9,181 bases of DNA from JBDROU01 sp043809745 [NCBI: bacterium] (GTDB lineage: Bacteria; Elusimicrobiota; JBDRMW01). The stretch is from positions 1-9,181 of the forward strand of contig JBDROU010000083.1 of assembly GCA_043809745.1 (NCBI GenBank), read 5' to 3'. Under the pieces are notes generated by a model. That model saw only the letters and a program-made list of their open reading frames with translations, was not told the DNA's origin and ran no database searches. Numbering within the stretch: position 1 is the first letter of the stretch; each line of letters begins with the position of its first letter. The translations under genes were made by a program, and so were the position numbers. Shown in pieces: positions 1 through 9,181 of the stretch.

Positions 1-803
1 GGTATGCTTGAATCGGGTTCGTCAATAAATCTGAAATCATAGTTCGATTTTTTGTTACTATAAAAATACATTATAGAAGAGTAAGATCCGCTGCCGATTC
101 TTATTCTTATTTTCCCGCTTACGTTAGAATTAGCACACTGGCGCAAACCATATACCTCGAACCATTGCTGTCTCATAGTTATACCTGTTGGTTCAATATC
201 TGCATTATAAGTAAAGTAGTAACTCTGGCCTTCATAAACCTCAGATGTTTTTGAGCAAACATTTGCGGCTGAATAAAGCGGGAATCTTACAGTTTTTGTT
301 TGTAAGCTAGAGGTGCTGTCGTATTCATAGGTGATATAAAGCTTCATCGAATGTGAACTGCTGTCTTCCTGATCAATTTTAACAGAGGCTGTATATTCTA
401 TATTGGCGCCGACTTCTATGACTGAAGTTACATCTACGAGCGCGAATATCCTTTCGTGCTCATCTGTGCTGTAGGAATAATCTCCTGTAGTAACATTCCT
501 TATTGTTGAAGCCGTTGTTCCTGAATCAAATTTTATTTCAAACACATTAAAATGTTTTCCCTTTTCACCCTTTGTAGTACATTCAAATTCCAGATAAGCA
601 TTTTTTATTGTTACCCCGTTTTCCGGTATATAAACTGTTATAGTTGGCGTTGTCCAGGTGCCGGGATTAGCAAGCACCTCACTGTAACAAGCGCCGAAAC
701 TCCACTCTGTAGTTTTTATGCGGGTATAGCTATATGCAGGTTGTATTAGGAGTACGAGGGAAAAGGGTACTAATAGTATAGCACAATACAGCTTTAGCTT
801 CAT
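1..803 (-). CDS. Exported beta-rich protein of unknown function, 5' part only (C-terminus off the left edge)
   Basis: The minus frame is open from the ATG at 801-803 to the window edge, about 267 codons with no stop. The product begins with Lys residues and a hydrophobic stretch (about residues 4-22) followed by PAYS|Y, a good type I signal peptide with cleavage near residue 25. The mature part is rich in Ser, Thr, Tyr and alternating hydrophobic residues, suggesting beta-sandwich folds. The stretches YIPENGVTIKNAYLEFE (about 57-73) and DVTSVIEVG (about 123-131) recall surface domains of the DNRLRE/jelly-roll kind, where a strand pair is followed by a 'VDVT' strand; this is weak resemblance, not a family call. 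A few Cys residues could form disulfides. No Shine-Dalgarno precedes the ATG and no other start is available in frame upstream. Likely a secreted or cell-surface protein; the function is not recognised. Confidence 0.8.
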   Translation of the reverse strand, partial: MKLKLYCAILLVPFSLVLLIQPAYSYTRIKTTEWSFGACYSEVLANPGTWTTPTITVYIPENGVTIKNAYLEFECTTKGEKGKHFNVFEIKFDSGTTASTIRNVTTGDYSYSTDEHERIFALVDVTSVIEVGANIEYTASVKIDQEDSSSHSMKLYITYEYDSTSSLQTKTVRFPLYSAANVCSKTSEVYEGQSYYFTYNADIEPTGITMRQQWFEVYGLRQCANSNVSGKIRIRIGSGSYSSIMYFYSNKKSNYDFRFIDEPDSSI

Positions 804-837
804 ACTATATGTATAACATGAATTCCGGAAATTTCAA
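803..837 (-). promoter_or_regulatory. Candidate promoter giving a leaderless mRNA
   Basis: Read on the minus strand, TTGAAA (832-837) is followed after 16 bases by TATACA (810-815). The expected transcription start, about 7 bases after the -10 box, falls on the A of the ATG at 803. No GGAG-like site lies within 20 bases upstream of that ATG, which agrees with leaderless translation. The boxes are good but not perfect sigma70 matches; the reading is inference. Confidence 0.4.
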
Positions 838-1018
838 GGTGATTTTAGTCACACCTATTGTATTAAAAATAAGCCTATTCCTACAATCCCCTTGACAAAA
901 CAGCCTATTTCAACCAGTGGTATTAATGGATTTAATTTAATAGGAAATAGAGGCATTCCTAGTTTTTTAACAATTGTTATTTAATCAAGTATAATAACAT
1001 ATTATTGTTAAATAAAAA

Positions 1019-1132
1019 ATGAGCAATCTCCTCTATGTACATAATCTGCATAAACATTTTGCCGCGCCACATGAAAACAAGTGTGTAGGGTTTGGATTCA
1101 TAAACGGATTCATAAAACAATCGACAGGTTAA
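1019..1132 (+). other. 37-codon open frame resembling the N-terminus of an ABC transporter ATPase; possible relic
   Basis: ATG at 1019 opens a 37-codon frame ending at TAA 1130-1132. Its start, MSNLLYVHNLHKHF, fits the common ABC ATPase opening LLxVxNLxKxF, and about 14 residues later VGFGFI sits where VDGVSFSI is usual. There is no ribosome binding site (only an A-run precedes it), no Walker A, and the frame ends at once. It could be the degraded stub of a lost gene, a leader peptide for the porin operon, or chance. I favour relic or chance. Confidence 0.15.
1094..1117 (+). repeat. Tandem 12-bp direct repeat upstream of the porin promoter, possible operator
   Basis: GGATTCATAAAC (1094-1105) is followed directly by GGATTCATAAAA (1106-1117), identical in 11 of 12 positions. 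A direct repeat of about one helical turn shortly upstream of the porin -35 region is the arrangement used by OmpR/PhoB-type response regulators. The TTCATAA core loosely resembles a Pho-box half site, but the period is 12 rather than 11. The regulator is not identifiable from the sequence. Confidence 0.4.
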
Positions 1133-1133
1133 A

Positions 1134-1179
1134 TAAAATTTGTTATAGTTTCAATCTATAATATACTATCACAAAGGAG
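1134..1179 (+). promoter_or_regulatory. Porin promoter region and ribosome binding site
   Basis: A perfect TATAAT lies at 1157-1162, with only a poor -35 (TAAAAT, 1134-1139) at 17-bp spacing. An overlapping alternative pairs TTGTTA (1140-1145) with TATACT (1162-1167) at 16 bp. A strong Shine-Dalgarno AAAGGAG (1173-1179) sits 9 bases before the ATG at 1189. The weak -35 would suit an activated promoter, in line with the tandem repeat just upstream. Confidence 0.55.
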
Positions 1180-1188
1180 TAGGTTAAA

Positions 1189-2451
1189 ATGAAATATTTA
1201 AAGATATTAGCGGCAGTAATCTTCAACTGTGCGCTTGCGCTCAGCGTAATGGCTGGAGAAATTGACATGTTGTTGGACAAGCTGGCGGAAAAAGACGTAA
1301 TAAGCTACGGAGAAGCTCAACAGATCAAGACAGAATCAGCTGAACAGATCAGGGCAGACATCGCCGCGGGCAAACACGCCGATGCTCCGAGCTGGGTTCA
1401 GAGCATTATGCTAAAGGGGGATGTGCGTCTAAGAAATCAAACTGAGCGCAAAGATCAAGATGAGCGCAGGAACAGGAATCGTGTGAGAGCTAAAGTAGGG
1501 ATTCTTGCAAATGTTACGCCCAACTGGAAAGCAGGAATAGGTTTGGCAACAGGTGGGACTGATTCCCGTTCAACTAATCAAACTTTAGAAGACGGATTTT
1601 CTAAAAAAGGCATAATGCTGGATTATGCATATATGAATTACATTCCTGTCAGCTGGCTTGCGTTATGGGGCGGTAAATACGGTATAGAAAACGCGCTGTG
1701 GAAAACCGGTGATCTTTTGTGGGACAGTGATATCAATGTGGAAGGTGTTAATGCGAATATCAAATATAAGGTTAATTCATTTAAATTTTTCATTAACTCC
1801 GGCTACTGGATTCTGGACGAATTTAAGGATTCGGGTAGTTCGCAGACAAATAATCCGGCTGATCCTTATATGATTATGGTCCAGCCCGGTATTAAGTACA
1901 GCTTCAGCAAACCTAACTATATAAAGGTAGCGTCTCATTTTTATCAATTCCAGCATGTAAAAGATGAAGCAGTGCTTCCTAACTCTGAAGGTGGAAATAC
2001 CACATATACCAATGGCGCTGGGAATACTGTGCTTAAATACGATTATGATTCAGTCGGCGCAGATGCTGAGATCGGGTTCGCGATTCCCGGCGGGATCCCC
2101 AAACTTCAATGGGGAGCGGTTTTTGGCGAGTATATAAAAAATAATAATCCTGACAAAAGAAACGAAGGATCACTGGGCGGTATAAAGTTGGGAGAGCAGA
2201 AAATCACAGAGTTTGGTCATATTCAGGCGACATATATGTACAGGCATCTTGAAAAGGACGCCTGGCTTGATATTTTTCCTGATTCAGATTCGTACGATGG
2301 GGAAACAGGTATTATGGGTCATGAAATAATATTAACTGTCGGTTTAGCAAAAAATGTTTCTCTTGCTTTTGACTGGTATGACATGAGACCAACTACACCG
2401 AATTCCAGGCATAAGAAATTACTGCAAACAGACTTGTTGGTTAAGTTTTAA
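1189..2451 (+). CDS. Putative outer-membrane porin
   Basis: The 420-residue product starts with a signal peptide (residues 1-22, likely cleaved at VMA|GE). Next comes a short helical segment, [22 protein letters not shown], of the kind found at the N-terminus of the 'putative porin' family (Porin_5-like), where a 'LLDKLVEKGILTxxEA' helix precedes the barrel. From about residue 70 the protein alternates amphipathic strands with polar Asn/Asp/Gly turns, and it ends in ...LLVKF; a terminal Phe is the usual BAM recognition signal of outer-membrane barrels. It should form a diffusion pore; the substrate is not visible. The ATG is fixed by a strong ribosome binding site. The gene is first in a transcription unit with arsC, 27 bp downstream with no terminator between. 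Family membership is likely; specificity (for example phosphate) would be speculation. Confidence 0.85.
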
Positions 2452-2478
2452 GATTCAGTTAAATAAAAAGGGATAAAT

Positions 2479-2919
2479 ATGGATAAGCAGAGCGTATTAT
2501 TTGTCTGCATGCATAACTCAGCCAGAAGCCAGATTGCAGAGGCCTTGTTGAAACAAATGGCAGGGGATAGATTTAATGTGGAGAGCGCCGGTATTGAACC
2601 CGGAACGGTTAATCCGCTGGCGGTGGAGGTTATGAAGGAAGCCGGTATAGATATTTCCGGGAATAAGACAAAAAGCGCGTTTAATTTTTTAAAACAGAAA
2701 AAACAATAGACTGATGTTATAACGGTATGTGATGAAACGGAAGGTGAGCGCTGCCCTGTTTTCCCAGGAGCCGCTAAACTCCTGCATTGGAGCTTTGACG
2801 ACCCGTCAAAATTTCAGGGCACTCAAGAAGAGAAGTTGGAAAAGGCCCGATCAGTCCGCGATGCAATCAAAGAAAAAATAACCGATTTTTTGAACGATCT
2901 CAGTCGTATCAGCGTATAG
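2479..2919 (+). pseudogene. arsC: Arsenate reductase ArsC (thioredoxin-coupled, LMW-phosphatase fold), interrupted by an in-frame TAG
   Basis: The frame starts at ATG 2479 after the site AAAAGGGA. Codons 1-76 give the LMW protein-tyrosine-phosphatase P-loop, [11 protein letters not shown], with the nucleophile Cys10, then [27 protein letters not shown], typical of ArsC. TAG at 2707-2709 stops it. The same frame then continues without any shift: [16 protein letters not shown], with the two resolving Cys of B. subtilis-type ArsC (Cys82 and Cys89 there), then [21 protein letters not shown] and a TAG at 2917-2919. Full length would be 146 codons, normal for the family (about 139). One substitution, for example of a Tyr codon, explains the interruption. 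No start codon with a ribosome binding site lies soon after the TAG, so the second half is not independently translated. Intact, it would reduce arsenate to arsenite in the cytoplasm. Alternatives are TAG readthrough or a sequencing error. Confidence 0.85.
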
Positions 2920-5824
2920 CTGTGTTTCCTGATAGGGCATCAAGGGCGTGTTTGTTATTCGGGTCGATCTCAAGAGCTTTAAGGAAGTATTTACGGGATG
3001 CAGCCGGTTGCCCGTTATTGAGATGCAGATATCCTAGATTTAATAATGGTGTTATATAAGAAGGATCTAATTTAGAAGCTTTTTCCAGATATTCTTTGGC
3101 GAGTTCAATTTCGCCTAAGTTTAAATAGGTTGTGCCAATATTATTGTTCGATTTCGGCGAGTCCGGATTTACTTCTAAGGCTTTCTTGTATTCATTTATT
3201 ACCATTTGAAGGTTGGTTCCCATTTTTCTGAATTTTTCTGCCCTGTCGCGGTAAATAAATTCCAAAAGTATTTTTGCATTTTTATCGTCAGGGTTAACAT
3301 TTAGAGCTTCTTTGTATTCCTTAATGCTATCATTGTATTTCTCAGCCAGTTGAGCAGCCTGGCCGTTCAATAAATGGGTAGTGGCTTTTGCGTATAACTC
3401 TATTTTTTTCTCAACTCTGGACCTTTCTTCTTCAGTTTCCCCGTAATTTTTCAGAAAAGGGATTATGCTTTCCCTTGCCGCTATAATATCTAAAAAGTTT
3501 ATATGCCAGGAGCCTTCCCGTCCGATTTTTTGAATCCGCGGCGTGCTGAATTCTATGTAAGGATAGTTTACAGTGTTTAATATGCCTTCTTTTTTACAGA
3601 AGTTGCCTATGGATTCTTCCGCCATTACGAAACAATCAACAAAGGAAAATGGATCATCTATTCCAAGATAATTTAAATCTGCCTTTACTTTCTCATCCTC
3701 TAGTATGTCTTTTGTAATTCTGTTAAAATCTACGGAGAAAGGTTCGTTAGATCCAACAATTATTGTGTAAGGATTTACATTTGTATTCACATACCATAAG
3801 CTTATGTGCGGAAATACTTTAAGGAAACTTCTCATAATTACGCTGTAATCCTCTTGTGACAGGCTATAAAAAGGAAACCAGAAAGACATCATCCCGCCGG
3901 GGTTTAAGTGTTCTTTGCATATCTCGAAATAATCAACAGCATATAATGAGCCATTGCCTGCGTATGTTGGATGAACCGAGTCCGACATTATGATGTCGTA
4001 TTTTCTTTTAGTTTTTAATATATAATTCTTTGCATCATCAAATATTACTTTTAATCTGGGATCTTGAAGCACCTCTGCGTTTTGTGTTTGAAAGAACGGG
4101 GCTGCATCGAGTACGGATTTGCAGATTTCAGCGCAGTGTATTTCCTCTATAAAGTCGTGTTGCGAGATTGACCAGAGCGATCCTCCAGATCCGAACCCGA
4201 CCTGGAGCACACTTTTTGGTTTTCCAAAAAGAAGTATCGGCAGATGGCCCTGCATTTTTTGAGTATTCCTGTATTCATAGCTTGTCCCGGCAACACTCTT
4301 GCCGTTTATTTCAAGCAGAAGTTCCCCGGTTCTAATTTTTCTAACAGTTACTATTGCTGTAGGATCTTCCTTGTAAAATAGAAGATTCTGCTCTCCGTAC
4401 TGTTTCTCAACAAAGGTGTTCGTGGAAAGAATAAGAGGCTTGTCAGTCTTTATGAAAAATTGTGTTGCTCCGAGCAGAAGTATTAAGATTCCGGTGATTG
4501 CCAATGTAGGTTTTTTATTGAAAGTTTTGGAATAATAGAAAGCTACTATACCCATTGTTATATTAATCCCAGCAACTATTATTATGCTTTTTTGTATCCC
4601 GACAAGAGGAAGCAAAATAAATCCCGCGGTAAATGAACCAGCTATTGAACCGAGTGTATTGATTGCATAGGCCTTGCCAACAGTTGCGCCTATCAGTTTT
4701 AGTTCATCGATAAGTATTTTTATTATTAAAGGAAAGGCAATACCCATGAGTAACGTTGGGAATAACATAAGAGGCAAGGTAATCCCAAAATAAGGAATAC
4801 TAAATCCGATTATGTTATCCATTTTACCCAGCAGACCTTGGAAAAGCTGCACTTTAGCCAATGAATGGAAAATAGGTATGGTTAAAATACCCCAAAGTCC
4901 TATGAGTATTTCGGTTATACTTAATGAGAGCAATAAGTGTTTTTTAAAATCCAAAAATCTGGCCCAGATAAAACTTCCCAACCCGATTCCAAGCAGGAAT
5001 GTTGTAAGCATGGATGAGAATGAATAAACGGTGTTGTCTACGAATAACGCAAGGCCTTTCGTCCAGAGTATTTCGAATGCTAAGGAGCAAAAGCCGGTAA
5101 AAAAGAATATAGTGATTATAATGGTCTTAAAATATTTTGGTTCTTCGCTCAGGGTTGCTGCAATCGGAGGTATAATCGCTTTTTGTTGCGAGACTTCTTT
5201 TAATCGATCTGACTTATAAGCTCTGTATGCGATAACAGCAACAATGATATTTAGACATATCGCAAAGCTGATGCTTCCCCATAAACCAATAGAACTTATT
5301 AATATGAAACCGGCTAGATAAGTGCCGATAACCGCTCCAATTGTATTTAGTCCGTAAAGAGTCCCTATATCTGAGCCAATATCTTCTTTCCGATTGATGA
5401 CAAATTTACTCAGGACAGGCAGTGTAGCTCCCATAAGCGTTGTTGGTATCAGTAAAGGAATAAAGGACAGTAAAAACCTAACAATATTGAAGATATAAAA
5501 ACTGCCGGGAAAAAGCTGATATACAAATATGTAGAGTTTTTCTGAAAAAAGTAAAAGTAATGGCAGGAGTAATGCTGAAACAGCGATACCTACTTCCAAT
5601 ACAGCGTAAAACAAGAGTGGATTCCAGCCGCGGTCAATTCGTTTGCCAAAGAAGTAGCTGCCGAGCGCTAATCCGGCCATGAATGCGGTTACAACGGTTG
5701 ATACAGCGTAAACGGTGGCGCCAAATGAGGATATGAACATTCTTATCCAGACAACTTCATAAACCAGGCCCGCTATTCCTGAAAGGAAGAAGAGTGTGAA
5801 TACGGTTGATTTTATATTCTTCAT
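2909..5824 (-). CDS. Fused MFS-like membrane / spermidine-synthase-like / TPR protein
   Basis: The product has 971 residues. Residues 1-200 and 230-460 are hydrophobic, with about 12-14 membrane helices, and form two related halves: [14 protein letters not shown] (15-28) matches [14 protein letters not shown] (243-256), each followed by a TVYxxS...GLALGS/GIGLGS stretch. Residues about 490-700 are a spermidine-synthase-like, SAM-binding Rossmann domain: [10 protein letters not shown] (539-548, motif I), AEIC (565-568, acidic ribose ligand position), DDA (596-598) and [20 protein letters not shown] (614-633). True synthases carry DSTDP; here the second Asp is His618. TPR repeats fill about 822-967. 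This matches the 'fused MFS/spermidine synthase' family of uncultured bacteria, whose reaction is unproven. The start lacks a clear ribosome binding site, but the first helix begins at once. The gene converges on arsC with an 11-bp overlap and is divergent from the GGQ-protein gene. Its TGA stop is at 2909-2911. Confidence 0.88.
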
Positions 5825-5925
5825 AAAATTTATTCTATCAAATCTTGCTAGTTTATAAAAGAAAAACTATAATTTATAACTAAGCTGCTAAAAATTGAGG
5901 GGTTTCCCCAGAACCGAGATTGGAT
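5825..5925. other. Short divergent intergenic region
   Basis: About 100 bp separate the minus-strand fusion gene from the plus-strand GGQ-protein gene, so promoters for both must lie here or overlap. The AT-rich stretch 5850-5880 has TATA-like -10 candidates on both strands, none with a clear -35. A short GC hairpin, GGGG (5899-5902) and CCCC (5906-5909), sits 16 bases before the ATG of the plus gene and could affect its initiation region. Confidence 0.3.
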
Positions 5926-6336
5926 ATGGGATTTTTTCCGGTTAGTCAAAGCAAAGAAGAAGCGCTCTTTAAAAGGATGCGGGATTTAGGAATAAAAGAG
6001 CCGGATCTTAATGAGAAATTTATCTGTTCCGGCGGGAAAGGCGGTCAGAACCTTAATAAAGTCGCTACCTGTGTTTATTTAAAGCATATTCCAACAGGTA
6101 TAGAAGTTAAGATGCAGCAGGAGCGCTCTCAGGGACTTAACAGGTTTCTTGCAAGACGCCTGCTTGTCCAGAAGATAGAAGAAAGAATAAATGGCATAAA
6201 AACAGCCGAGAGAACGCGCGTAGAAAAGATCAGGAAGCAAAAGAGAAGACGTTCAAGAAGGTCAAAAGAAAAGATTCTGAGAGATAAAAAACTCCACTCA
6301 CTTAAAAAATCCCTCCGAAAAAATATTTGGAGTTAG
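5926..6336 (+). CDS. GGQ-domain peptide chain release factor-like / ribosome-rescue protein
   Basis: The 136-residue product carries the RF-1 catalytic domain without the codon-recognition domains. The motif SGGKGGQNLNKVATCVYL has GGQ at about residues 39-41, followed by HIPTGIEVKMQQERSQGLNRFLARRLL, a strong match to stand-alone release-factor-like proteins (ArfB/YaeJ and C12orf65 relatives). The last 40 or so residues are very basic (KIRKQKRRRSRRSKEK...), like the ArfB tail that enters the empty mRNA channel of a stalled ribosome. Expected role: hydrolysis of peptidyl-tRNA on stalled ribosomes or released large subunits, in the cytoplasm. I prefer ATG 5926, which has a GAG 7 bases upstream, over TTG 5920, which has no usable site; TTG would add two residues. 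It ends in TAG and appears to be a single-gene unit. The exact subfamily is uncertain. Confidence 0.88.
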   Translation: MGFFPVSQSKEEALFKRMRDLGIKEPDLNEKFICSGGKGGQNLNKVATCVYLKHIPTGIEVKMQQERSQGLNRFLARRLLVQKIEERINGIKTAERTRVEKIRKQKRRRSRRSKEKILRDKKLHSLKKSLRKNIWS

Positions 6337-6406
6337 ACCTCAATTTAAGCATTAACAATTAAGTTCTGTGCATGGTCAAATCCATAAAAAAATAATTTAC
6401 AAGAGT

Positions 6407-6436
6407 TTTACACAATCTTAATATGAATTTGATAAT
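6407..6436 (+). promoter_or_regulatory. Candidate sigma70 promoter of the 6471 gene
   Basis: TTTACA (6407-6412) and GATAAT (6431-6436) are spaced by 18 bp. Transcription would start near 6443, leaving a leader of about 28 bases that contains the ribosome binding site AAAGGT (6460-6465) before the ATG at 6471. Confidence 0.5.
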
Positions 6437-6470
6437 GTCTATATGGGACTACTGCATTCAAAGGTAAAAA

Positions 6471-7955
6471 ATGAGGATAAAATTTATATCAATATTTACT
6501 GCATTAAGTTTTTGTATGCAAACATTTATTTGTTCTGAATGTTTCGAATTTTTGGCACCTCCAGGATCAGCTCTGTTAAAACCAAATTTTATTGAAGTAG
6601 GCGGGCAATATGAAAAATACAATATCGGAGATGCCAAAAATTTTGATGAACTCATAAACCAGATTCAAACAAATCCAATGAGAGATCTGTTTAATGTATC
6701 GGAAACAAAGCTGATTGGATATTTGCCTCTTATTTTTATTCAAGCTCGCGGGTATTCAGAGGATGATATAATATATTTTGCTAAAGAAAAGAACCTGGAA
6801 TACTGTCCAATATTCTATAGAGGTTTGGTGTTTTGCGTTGTTTATAATCCCGTTGCGTTAAAAAAGCTTATTGAAAAAAAAATCGAAATTCTTGCAAACT
6901 CTAAAATACCATTAGATGTGGCAAGCTTTGTTGAGTATATCAGCTTTAATGAAATCAAAGATGAAGGGGCGGAAGGAGTTATTAAACTTGCTTTTAATGA
7001 TATTTCGCTTATTGAAGAATATATTCCTAAATTTGTTGAAGAGTATTTTGCCCTGACGCCGAATTTTGACGAAATTTCATTTGAAATAAAAGCAATTAAG
7101 GATCTGTTTCATCGATATGCAATTGCAGATTATAATGTAGTTGAAGGAATTTTCGAAAAATTAATGAAGCCGAATCCGGATAAGAATGAAAAGATGATCA
7201 AGGTCTTTAATTTAATATTATTTTCAATGAAAATGTATAAGAATGTTACTTCGCTTTACGCGTATAAGCTAAACGATTATATGGAAAAACAAATGATTGA
7301 GCTGGGAAGCGAGAAAAAATTTAAAGATGCGGTTAAAAAAGATAGTCTGGAATTATACCTTGCAGAACTTACTTCACTTAGCACAGATCATCCATTTATT
7401 GACGGATGGAGGGACGTGATTTTTGACGAGCATCTCTTGAAATTACTTCCTGAAAAAGATGTGGCCAGAATAAAAGAGATGATAATGAAAGTAGTTAATA
7501 GTCTGAATGATGATAGCAACAGACAGGAATTGCTGCTTGAACTTATTAGAAATATAAGAAGAATTGAAAACGAAGATCGTGAGCGCCTGTATACAAGGAA
7601 GAATTATTTCGATTATTTTTACATATTAGACATTGTGGTTCGCAAGTGGATTTCTCATTTCCATCTTAGCAAAGAAAGATCCCGGGAAATCCTTAAAAAC
7701 GATGTGGGTGAGTTGCTTGCCTTAAAAAATTTGGATTCAGATATTTTGGAACTGTTGAGAAAGCTCAATTTAATAGAAGTCTGGGACAAAGATGCAGATG
7801 TTCTTGCAGAAGATCGCTTAACACAAGATACAGAATCTTACAGAAACATGATAGGAAATGAAATAGCAAGTCAGAAGGCGCAAAAGATTTTTGAGTTGCC
7901 AAATTTAAAGCAAAAAAGTTTTAGACTCTTTGACTTGATCAGATCTTCCCTGTAA
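6471..7955 (+). CDS. Exported, mainly helical protein of unknown function
   Basis: The 494-residue product has a hydrophobic N-terminus (about residues 4-22) that looks like a signal peptide, with Cys at 15, 21 and 24, then FEFLAPPGSALLKPNF. None of these Cys sits in a clean lipobox, so a lipoprotein is possible but not supported. The rest is highly charged, with many Lys/Glu/Leu/Ile-rich stretches and no membrane segment, consistent with an all-helical protein. I see no catalytic motif. A LAPP-type stretch soon after the signal peptide is something I recall from exported proteins of Omnitrophota; this is an impression only. The start is fixed by AAAGGT 5 bases before the ATG and a promoter just upstream. 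It is flanked by its own promoter and a terminator-like hairpin, so it is probably monocistronic. It ends in TAA. No function is assigned. Confidence 0.8.
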   Translation: MRIKFISIFTALSFCMQTFICSECFEFLAPPGSALLKPNFIEVGGQYEKYNIGDAKNFDELINQIQTNPMRDLFNVSETKLIGYLPLIFIQARGYSEDDIIYFAKEKNLEYCPIFYRGLVFCVVYNPVALKKLIEKKIEILANSKIPLDVASFVEYISFNEIKDEGAEGVIKLAFNDISLIEEYIPKFVEEYFALTPNFDEISFEIKAIKDLFHRYAIADYNVVEGIFEKLMKPNPDKNEKMIKVFNLILFSMKMYKNVTSLYAYKLNDYMEKQMIELGSEKKFKDAVKKDSLELYLAELTSLSTDHPFIDGWRDVIFDEHLLKLLPEKDVARIKEMIMKVVNSLNDDSNRQELLLELIRNIRRIENEDRERLYTRKNYFDYFYILDIVVRKWISHFHLSKERSREILKNDVGELLALKNLDSDILELLRKLNLIEVWDKDADVLAEDRLTQDTESYRNMIGNEIASQKAQKIFELPNLKQKSFRLFDLIRSSL

Positions 7956-7979
7956 TTGAAAAATGTATTTTCCGAAAAA

Positions 7980-8020
7980 AACCGCCTGTCAAATTAATTT
8001 GACTAATGTGCGGTTATTTT
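7980..8020 (+). terminator. Terminator-like hairpin after the 6471 gene
   Basis: AACCGC (7980-7985) pairs with GCGGTT (8010-8015), followed by ATTTTAT. The loop contains a perfect 16-bp palindrome, GTCAAATTAATTTGAC (7988-8003), that extends the stem. It starts 25 bases after the stop codon and is preceded by an A-run, so it could work in both directions. The rest of the gap to the first tRNA (8021-8206) shows no gene; no clear tRNA promoter was found there. Confidence 0.55.
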
Positions 8021-8206
8021 ATAGAATTTCCTTTCTCGAAAAAATGCTGCATTACATACCGCTTGAATACATGGAAGGGTTGTAAGATAGCAGGTAATTC
8101 AGACTCGGGTTAGATTCGTTGGGCAGTTTCGCCGGGTGTGAAATAGCGGTTGTGATTTAGGCTGAAAATTCGGGATTTTTTATTTTATTGAGTAGTATTT
8201 GTGATG

Positions 8207-8280
<74 letters not shown>

Positions 8281-8321
8281 TTTTAAGAATCTTTATATAT
8301 GTTTTTATGTTCTAAATAATT

Positions 8322-8394
8322 GGGCCCGTAGCTCAGCTGGTAGAGCACCTACCTTTTAAGTAGGGTGTCGCGCGTTCGAGCCGCGCCGGGCTCA
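8322..8394 (+). tRNA. tRNA-Lys (anticodon TTT)
   Basis: Acceptor GGGCCCG (8322-8328) pairs with CGGGCTC (8387-8393) with one G-T pair, discriminator A8394. The anticodon stem CCTAC/GTAGG encloses CTTTTAA, anticodon TTT. The T-arm is GCGCG/CGCGC with loop TTCGAGC. No CCA is encoded; a T-run follows directly and could end transcription. Confidence 0.95.
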
Positions 8395-8425
8395 TTTTTT
8401 AGCACTTTGGTCTTTAGAAAAGCTC

Positions 8426-8464
8426 AGGATTTTACTTCGCTCAGCTGCGCTCGAAATCAATCCT
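8426..8464 (-). repeat. 39-bp hairpin element between the two tRNA-Lys genes (miniature GAGCG repeat)
   Basis: The ends AGGATT (8426-8431) and AATCCT (8459-8464) are inverted, and inside them TTCG (8436-8439) pairs with CGAA (8452-8455) around a CAGCTG core. Read on the minus strand it contains two GAGCG words and ends with GAGCGAAGT (8434-8442), a 9-mer also found at 8933-8941 in the GC-rich element after tRNA-Leu. The last 11 bases, AAATCAATCCT (8454-8464), are also perfectly inverted at 8498-8508. It resembles a REP-type interspersed repeat. Confidence 0.5.
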
Positions 8465-8529
8465 AAGCATAGTAAGACTTTTGATATCAGGAATCAGAGG
8501 ATTGATTTTATATTATCAATATTTAGTAC

Positions 8530-8602
8530 GCGCCATTAGCTCAATTGGTAGAGCAGGACACTCTTAATGTCAAGGTTGTAGGTTCAAGTCCTACATGGCG
8601 TA
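8530..8602 (+). tRNA. tRNA-Lys (anticodon CTT)
   Basis: Acceptor GCGCCAT (8530-8536) pairs with ATGGCGT (8595-8601) with one G-T pair at the end, discriminator A8602. The anticodon loop CTCTTAA carries CTT, reading AAG. The T-arm is GTAGG/CCTAC with loop TTCAAGT. The outer anticodon-stem pair is a G-A mismatch. No CCA is encoded. Together with tRNA-Lys(TTT) it covers both Lys codons. Confidence 0.94.
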
Positions 8603-8622
8603 AAAAATTGACAATAAATAGT

Positions 8623-8704
8623 GCCGCAGTGGTGAAACTGGCAGACACGTACGGCTTAGGACCGTATGCTTAACGGCTTGTGGGTTCAAATCCCTCCTGC
8701 GGCA
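8623..8704 (+). tRNA. tRNA-Leu (anticodon TAG)
   Basis: Acceptor GCCGCAG (8623-8629) pairs fully with CTGCGGC (8697-8703), discriminator A8704. The anticodon stem TACGG/CCGTA encloses CTTAGGA, anticodon TAG (8657-8659), reading CTA. A long variable arm (TGCTTAACGGCTT) marks the class II type. The T-loop is TTCAAAT, with a T-T mismatch in the T-stem. No CCA is encoded. Its 3' end is duplicated downstream at 8952-8975. Confidence 0.94.
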
Positions 8705-8711
8705 AAGAGAA
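8688..8711 (+). repeat. Left copy of a 24-bp direct repeat at the 3' end of tRNA-Leu (att-like)
   Basis: These 24 bases cover the end of the T-loop, the T-stem and acceptor 3' strands, the discriminator and 7 bases beyond the tRNA. They recur exactly at 8952-8975, starting AAATCCCTCCTG in both. A tRNA 3' end repeated at the far side of a segment of different composition is the usual mark of a tRNA-targeted insertion. Confidence 0.7.
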
Positions 8712-8762
8712 ACAAAGACAAAAATATTTTACAGACATAGATGATTGACAAGCTGAAATAGA

Positions 8763-8960
8763 GAGGGATTTGAAGCCGACCCGAGCGCTGCCGGTGGCAG
8801 GAGGAGCGAGGGCGGCAGGCTCCGGAGGGCCGCCGCGCGACGAAGAAGGAGCGCGTGACTGGCGGCGGGCGCGAGACGGTGAGCGCCCCGGATAGAGCGA
8901 TAGCGAGCGGGTGAGCGACCGAAGGAAGTCCCGAGCGAAGTCGAGGGAGAGAAATCCCTC
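8763..8960. repeat. GC-rich, GAGCG-repeat element after tRNA-Leu, possibly a small non-autonomous mobile or REP-like element
   Basis: The block is bounded by the inverted pair GAGGGATTT (8763-8771) and AAATCCCTC (8952-8960). By hand count 118 of 160 bases in 8781-8940 are G or C (74%), against clearly AT-rich surroundings. GAGCG occurs eight times on the plus strand. It can form hairpins: CTGCC/GGCAG (8788-8800, 3-base loop) and GGCGGC/GCCGCC (8811-8834) around the palindrome CTCCGGAG. It encodes no recombinase or transposase. A 99-codon minus-strand frame across it is spurious: both ends are just the antisense of the tRNA-Leu repeat. It could be a structured RNA, a REP/MITE-type element or the scar of a larger insertion. 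Confidence 0.6.
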
Positions 8961-8975
8961 CTGCGGCAAAGAGAA
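8952..8975 (+). repeat. Right copy of the 24-bp tRNA-Leu 3'-end repeat
   Basis: Identical to 8688-8711, including the 7 bases past the tRNA end; the sequences diverge at the next base (G8976 versus A8712). It is a fragment without the rest of a tRNA, so it is not a gene. Confidence 0.7.
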
Positions 8976-9106
8976 GAAGTTAGAGATTATACTTTAATAT
9001 AAAAGGAGAAGGGCCCACCAATAACATTCTCGATCTGCTGAATTGAGGAACCTTGGATTAATTAATTTGTTAATAACCAAGTAAAAGATAATGTGGGTCA
9101 AAAAAT
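8976..9106. other. Intergenic sequence before the right-edge gene
   Basis: No gene is seen. A GGAG (9004-9007) is not followed by a usable start codon. CTTGG and CCAAG, either side of an AT-rich loop (about 9052-9081), form a weak inverted repeat. No convincing promoter pair was found. Confidence 0.4.
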
Positions 9107-9181
9107 ATGAATGAAAAACTTGAAGGCGTTCAGTATAAGATAGTAGAAAACAATCCATGCGAAATTTCGGTAGATATAATG
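9107..9181 (+). CDS. N-terminal 25 codons of a gene, possibly trigger factor
   Basis: ATG at 9107 opens a frame that runs to the window edge; an in-frame TAA at 9089-9091 rules out an earlier start. The product begins MNEKLEGVQYKIVENNPCEI and continues SVDIM. A first strand of the form VxxKIVExxPCEISVDI fits the start of trigger factor (for example ...VEEIxxxKKKLxIEIP), and tRNA-Leu upstream of tig-clpP-clpX is an order I recall from other bacteria. The visible part is too short for certainty. No good Shine-Dalgarno is present. If it is trigger factor, it is a ribosome-bound chaperone for nascent proteins. Confidence 0.45.
   Translation, partial: MNEKLEGVQYKIVENNPCEISVDIM

What the first reader, a model, noticed from the sequence alone, without database searches (positions are those of the whole stretch)
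8688..8975. tRNA-Leu 3' end exactly duplicated around a foreign-looking GC-rich segment
The same 24 bases occur at the tRNA-Leu 3' end (8688-8711) and at 8952-8975, extending 7 bases past the tRNA. The 240 bp between them changes sharply to about 74% GC. This is the layout of attL/attR after integration into a tRNA gene, but no integrase or cargo is present, so it may be a minimal non-autonomous element or the scar of a deleted island.
Basis: partly seen in the sequence, partly recalled or inferred. Interest (0 to 1): 0.75.

Follow-up and report, generated by a model that had tools for sequence, protein, structure and literature searches.

The report
Short GC-rich islet after tRNA-Leu gene
A 24-base piece of a tRNA gene's tail is repeated just downstream around a short, GC-rich stretch, most likely the worn-down trace of a mobile element that once inserted at this tRNA; it is a plausible example of something known rather than a new system.

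Summary
The core observation holds. 24 identical bases lie at 8688-8711 (tRNA-Leu(TAG), mid T-loop to just past the gene) and 8952-8975, beyond chance (longest repeat in 100 shuffles: 17 nt). GC detail: the 240 bp between is 62% GC overall; the first 49 bp are AT-rich (27%) and the core 8775-8951 is 73%. A 19-nt motif at its right edge recurs in 21 viral-collection stretches, but whether it is a true intergenic repeat is unsettled. The islet lies between tRNA-Leu(TAG) and an ORF that may be tig; tRNA-Leu(TAG) lies near tig in 19 of 55 loci examined from two phyla, none with a comparable tail copy. Best reading, at about even odds: an att-flanked remnant of integration into the tRNA 3' end (CIME-like scar). 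The inverted copy fits poorly and leaves room for a repeat-driven rearrangement or a tiny trans-mobilised element. The decisive tests (copy number in this genome, the same junction in close relatives) could not be run: no genome is held for the window, and the one genome-collection scan found no close relative.

The parts
8622..8705 (+). tRNA-Leu(TAG), intact (8623-8704 by Rfam); T-stem GTGGG/CCCTC has one T:T mismatch
   Evidence: ARAGORN; Rfam RF00005 51.8 bits
8688..8711 (+). first copy of the 24-mer (attL-like): mid T-loop to just past the tRNA 3' end
8712..8762 (.). AT-rich stretch between the first copy and the GC-rich part (27.5% GC)
8763..8777 (-). inverted copy of the tRNA-Leu T-arm (14 of 15 nt); its GAGGGATTT is the reverse complement of AAATCCCTC at 8952-8960
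   Evidence: chance estimate; pairing in the 8706-8980 fold
8761..8951 (.). GC-rich part (71%; core 8775-8951 73%) with short predicted hairpins and 8 GAGCG on the + strand; left border set by eye
8930..8948 (+). CCCGAGCGAAGTCGAGGGA, a motif that recurs in 21 IMG/VR stretches (25 occurrences); REP-like only by resemblance
8952..8975 (+). second copy of the 24-mer (attR-like displaced tRNA tail)
9107..9181 (+). start of an ORF cut by the window end; perhaps tig, inferred only from tRNA-Leu(TAG)-tig order in other genomes
   Evidence: against: no Pfam match for its 25 aa, no similarity above shuffles

Best explanation
The 264-bp unit is the product of site-specific integration into the 3' end of tRNA-Leu(TAG). 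A recombinase, most likely a tyrosine integrase, crossed over in the T-loop/acceptor part of the gene. The incoming DNA restored the tRNA 3' end (attL-like, 8688-8711), and the original tail was pushed downstream (attR-like, 8952-8975). The integrase and cargo were then lost, leaving a CIME-like scar of about 240 bp. Shown here: the repeat, its position in the tRNA, the intact tRNA, the composition change and the lack of recognisable genes. Inferred: the integration event, the recombinase, and the loss of cargo.
For: A perfect 24-nt repeat spans mid T-loop to just past the tRNA 3' end, in direct orientation, with the whole tRNA intact. [quoted passage not shown] GC content departs from the rest of the window. 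tRNA-Leu(TAG) was found near trigger-factor genes in 19 of 55 loci; in those 19 the longest downstream match to the last 30 nt of the tRNA is 3-9 nt, against 18 nt here. Without one 264-bp unit, 137 bp would separate the tRNA end from ATG 9107, inside the 12-639 nt of the 10 junctions measured.
Against: No integrase, relaxase or phage family was matched by the window proteins scanned. The inverted T-arm copy beside the GC-rich core is not expected from simple integration. The GC jump starts about 50 bp after the att-like copy. 240 bp is far below usual island sizes: Islander's peaks are 13.6 and 39.9 kbp. No empty site and no second example: the 24-mer is absent from the 94 loci fetched, none of them close relatives; its 20-nt tRNA tail has an exact match in one viral contig only, and there it ends what looks like a different tRNA.
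Confidence: 0.48

Rival explanations
1. Repeat-driven local rearrangement with no integrase: a GC-rich block formed or landed about 50 bp downstream of tRNA-Leu, and template switching at the self-complementary T-arm copied the tRNA tail once in inverted and once in direct orientation, so that the two copies bound the block.
For: Both borders of the GC-rich part carry tRNA-tail sequence, inverted on the left and direct on the right. GAGGGATTT 8763-8771 pairs with 8952-8960 in the predicted fold of 8706-8980 (z -3.0). The right-edge motif recurs in 21 viral stretches, and 7 of its 25 occurrences have an inverted partner (14 or more of 19 nt) within 120 nt downstream. A similar palindrome lies at 8426-8464.
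Against: 13 of the 25 occurrences of the motif lie inside an ATG ORF of 100 aa or more (many in GC-rich contigs where such ORFs may be spurious), so it is not shown to be intergenic. Folding 8761-8975 alone predicts other partners for GGGATTT. The direct copy is perfect and ends outside the tRNA gene, as att repeats do. Copy number in this genome could not be tested.
Confidence: 0.25
2. A minimal non-autonomous element of about 264 bp that is integrated and excised at tRNA 3' ends by an integrase supplied in trans.
For: Two att-like ends, no recognised gene between, a predicted structured body and a tRNA-mimic inverted end.
Against: A single copy is known. No match in the plasmid or phage collections at E 0.01; no exact match of the left-edge 25-mer or an internal 18-mer in viral contigs.
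Confidence: 0.13
3. Assembly artefact: a larger island or a repeat collapsed or mis-joined in a draft or metagenome assembly.
For: Sharp GC change, which can hamper assembly (general knowledge). No parent genome is held to check against.
Against: No repeat was found at the left border 8762/8763 other than the inverted copy, and a 24-nt overlap is short for a mis-join at usual k-mer sizes (general knowledge). Reads were not available.
Confidence: 0.1

Closest known systems
CIME (cis-mobilizable element), a decayed ICE/IME that keeps attL and attR (PMC5704250, passages)
   Same: Flanked by direct repeats, one of which is a tRNA 3' end; no integration or transfer genes recognised.
   Different: Only about 240 bp, no recognisable gene remnants, excision and ancestry untested, extra inverted tail copy.
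Dehalococcoides ssrA genomic islands without integration module (PMC3146451, passages)
   Same: Short direct repeat (20 bp there, 24 here) of an RNA gene's 3' end; inferred breakpoint in the T-loop.
   Different: Those carry genes and lie in tandem with integrase-bearing islands; the target is tmRNA and the recombinase of the serine type.
Haloquadratum partial tRNA-Thr duplication without integrase (PMC3119063, passages)
   Same: Displaced tRNA fragment downstream of the gene, no integrase nearby, read as a remnant.
   Different: 6.7 kb apart, 5 mismatches over 57 nt, in an archaeon.
REP / BIME repeats (recalled, from no call)
   Same: GC-rich motif that recurs in other DNA, in 7 of 25 cases with an inverted partner.
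   Different: Intergenic location not shown, copy number in this genome unknown; I recall no REPs bounded by tRNA tails.

Membership tests
att-flanked tRNA-integrated element / CIME | direct repeat of the tRNA 3' end downstream in the same orientation | tested here: met
att-flanked tRNA-integrated element / CIME | tRNA gene kept intact | tested here: met
   ARAGORN; Rfam
att-flanked tRNA-integrated element / CIME | no integration or transfer genes between the att sites | tested here: met
   one antisense ORF of 60 aa or more; no Pfam match
att-flanked tRNA-integrated element / CIME | empty site in relatives, or relatives with a full element | not testable with these tools
   no genome held; genome scan gave no close relative
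att-flanked tRNA-integrated element / CIME | excision or mobilisation by a recombinase | not testable with these tools
   needs reads or an experiment
MITE | terminal inverted repeats with a short target duplication directly outside both | tested here: not met
   the left direct copy ends 51 nt before the left inverted copy, and the right direct copy overlaps the right inverted end
REP/BIME | motif found repeatedly between genes, often in inverted pairs | tested here: inconclusive
   25 occurrences in 21 viral stretches; 7 of 25 with an inverted partner downstream, 13 of 25 inside an ATG ORF of 100 aa or more
REP/BIME | many copies in the same genome, RAYT gene present | not testable with these tools
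   no genome held

The most novel reading that the evidence does not exclude
A new kind of very small (about 264 bp), gene-free mobile element whose body is a string of GC-rich hairpins and whose ends mimic the T-arm of a tRNA in both orientations, so that it is inserted at tRNA 3' ends by a recombinase supplied in trans.
Probability: 0.1. Interest if true: 0.6.

Novelty: new member of a known kind. Interest (0 to 1): 0.27.

Why it matters
If it is an integration scar, it marks the junction behind tRNA-Leu(TAG) as an integration site in this lineage. If it is a tiny trans-mobilised element, it would be a very small tRNA-targeting element with tRNA-like ends. As it stands it is one locus without comparative support.

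Tried and rejected
Own-genome search: no genome held. Genome-collection scan with the 971-aa spermidine-synthase-like protein: 11 loci, at most 34% identity, no close relatives; spending the only scan on this protein left none for the islet itself. Plasmid and phage blastn of 8705-8980 at E 0.01: no match. Viral-contig scans, exact matches only: left-edge 25-mer 0; internal 18-mer 0; right-edge motif followed by the tail 0; inverted-then-direct tail layout 1, whose left half is the tail of a tRNA-Pro in an array of 22 tRNA genes. Window 494-aa protein in viral contigs: no relative. tRNA plus islet as DNA query: 1 of 11 genomes with a 27-nt match, 2 of 60 genomes of G001's phylum with matches to the tRNA part only. 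Rfam: only the four tRNAs reach the gathering score; a permissive search of 8400-9181 added two matches below it, both over tRNA genes. MITE rejected because the direct repeats do not sit directly outside the inverted ends. Literature: ten searches answered; in the listings shown I noticed analogues but no description of this layout; two searches returned no paper. My guess that the window is from Omnitrophota is recalled from protein style and untested.

Survey of tRNA-Leu and tig: 55 loci from 55 genomes were scanned for tRNAs: L040-L043 (4 matches among 5 genomes of G005's phylum), L044-L073 (30 best of 38 matches among 41 genomes of G003's phylum), L074 (best) and L075-L094 (20 places picked by hand, near genomes already showing the linkage). 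So 19 of 55 is not an unbiased rate, and it counts only the flanks held. For L087-L094 only 67-210 bp downstream of the tRNA was held, so the absence of a tail copy is weakly tested there. Whether these phyla differ from the window's own is unknown.

Full report
Observation. The same 24 bases occur at 8688-8711 and 8952-8975 without mismatch and do not extend further on either side. Shuffling the window 100 times with dinucleotides kept gave a longest repeat of 17 nt at most, 12-14 nt in 91 of 100, so the repeat is not chance. ARAGORN places tRNA-Leu(TAG) at 8622-8705, Rfam at 8623-8704; the repeat starts within its T-loop and passes its 3' end by 6 or 7 nt. The tRNA is whole, with one T:T mismatch in the T-stem. 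The same GTGGG/CCCTC combination appears in another tRNA-Leu(TAG), L073, so I give it no weight.

Composition. The 240 bp between the copies is 62% GC: 49 bp of 26.5% and 191 bp of 71%; the core 8775-8951 is 73.4%. Windows of 191 bp over 1-8400 average 0.377 with a maximum of 0.529.

Anatomy. Just left of the core, 8763-8777 is the reverse complement of the tRNA T-arm in 14 of 15 nt; a 12-nt exact match was reached in 1 of 1000 shuffles of the interval. The right edge is the second 24-mer. The 191-bp part holds 8 GAGCG on the + strand and no CGCTC; 2 of 500 shuffles reached 8. The RNA fold of 8706-8980 is more stable than shuffles (z -3.0, 3 of 200 as good) and pairs 8763-8771 with 8952-8960. 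The DNA fold of the other strand has z -2.2, 3 of 200 as good. Folding 8761-8975 alone pairs these segments differently, so the long stem is not certain.

Right-edge motif. CCCGAGCGAAGTCGAGGGA (8930-8948) occurs 25 times in 21 stretches of viral contigs, some of them near-identical contigs; no tRNA was found in those 21. 7 of the 25 have an inverted partner (at least 14 of 19 nt) within 120 nt downstream, and 13 of the 25 lie inside an ATG ORF of 100 aa or more. It resembles REP repeats as I recall them, but an intergenic location is not shown.

Neighbourhood. Upstream are tRNA-Arg(TCG), tRNA-Lys(TTT) and tRNA-Lys(CTT), a 494-aa protein without a Pfam match and an RF-1-domain protein of 138 aa. 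Downstream an ORF starts at 9107 and runs off the window. I suspected tig because tRNA-Leu and tig are often neighbours (recalled). Its 25 residues gave no Pfam match and no similarity above shuffles, so its identity is not shown. The order itself exists elsewhere: tRNA-Leu(TAG) lies in 4 of 4 trigger-factor loci of one phylum, 6 of 30 in a first set from another, in L074, and in 8 of 20 hand-picked regions, 19 of 55 in all. In the 10 junctions measured, the distance to the first long ORF was 12 to 639 nt. In the 19, the last 30 nt of the tRNA recurs downstream over 3-9 nt at most, against 18 nt here by the same measure.

Interpretation. A tail copy in direct orientation behind an intact tRNA is the signature that Islander uses (PMC4383910, abstract and passages). 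The T-loop breakpoint and the 20-bp repeat of Dehalococcoides ssrA islands, including 15 without an integration module, are a close parallel (PMC3146451, passages). The term for an att-flanked element that lost integration and transfer genes is CIME (PMC5704250, passages). I favour such a remnant, at 0.48. Against it stand the inverted tail copy beside the GC-rich core, the delayed onset of the GC jump, the tiny size, and the lack of comparative evidence. The inverted copy keeps a repeat-driven rearrangement with template switching in play (0.25). A trans-mobilised mini-element (0.13) and an assembly artefact (0.10) remain.

What could not be tested. No whole genome is held for the window, and the single scan of the genome collection returned only distant proteins.

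Verdict. The repeat is real and probably meaningful, but most likely the trace of a known process. Interest 0.27.

Noticed in passing
L069 (tRNA at 2042-2128, minus strand) and L073 (tRNA at 2069-2155, minus strand): Upstream of tig, a complete tRNA-Leu(TAG) gene appears to sit inside another tRNA-Leu gene, between its D-arm and anticodon arm (read by eye). In L069 ARAGORN reads the outer halves, joined with many of the trims tried, as tRNA-Leu(TAG); in L073 it finds none. Possibly a tRNA-bearing insert that replaced its target.
   Followed up: partly
window 8426-8464: A palindrome AGGATT...TTCGCTC...GCTCGAA...AATCCT between tRNA-Lys(TTT) and tRNA-Lys(CTT) (sequence; fold of 8420-8482).
   Followed up: no
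window 2479-2709: ORF of 76 aa matching only the first part of arsenate reductase / low-molecular-weight phosphatase families; probably a broken gene.
   Followed up: no
L036 1441-1800: Viral contig holding what looks (by eye) like the tail of a tRNA-Thr(CGT), sharing 20 nt with the window's tRNA-Leu tail; ARAGORN finds no whole tRNA there, so it may be a phage att site.
   Followed up: no
window 8670-8969, minus strand: 99-aa ORF antisense to the tRNA tail and the islet, no Pfam match; it may be annotated as a false protein.
   Followed up: no
L062, tRNA at 2572-2656, minus strand: 639 nt between tRNA-Leu(TAG) and the first long ORF, with what may be an extra gene between, against 12-136 nt in the other nine junctions measured.
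   Followed up: no
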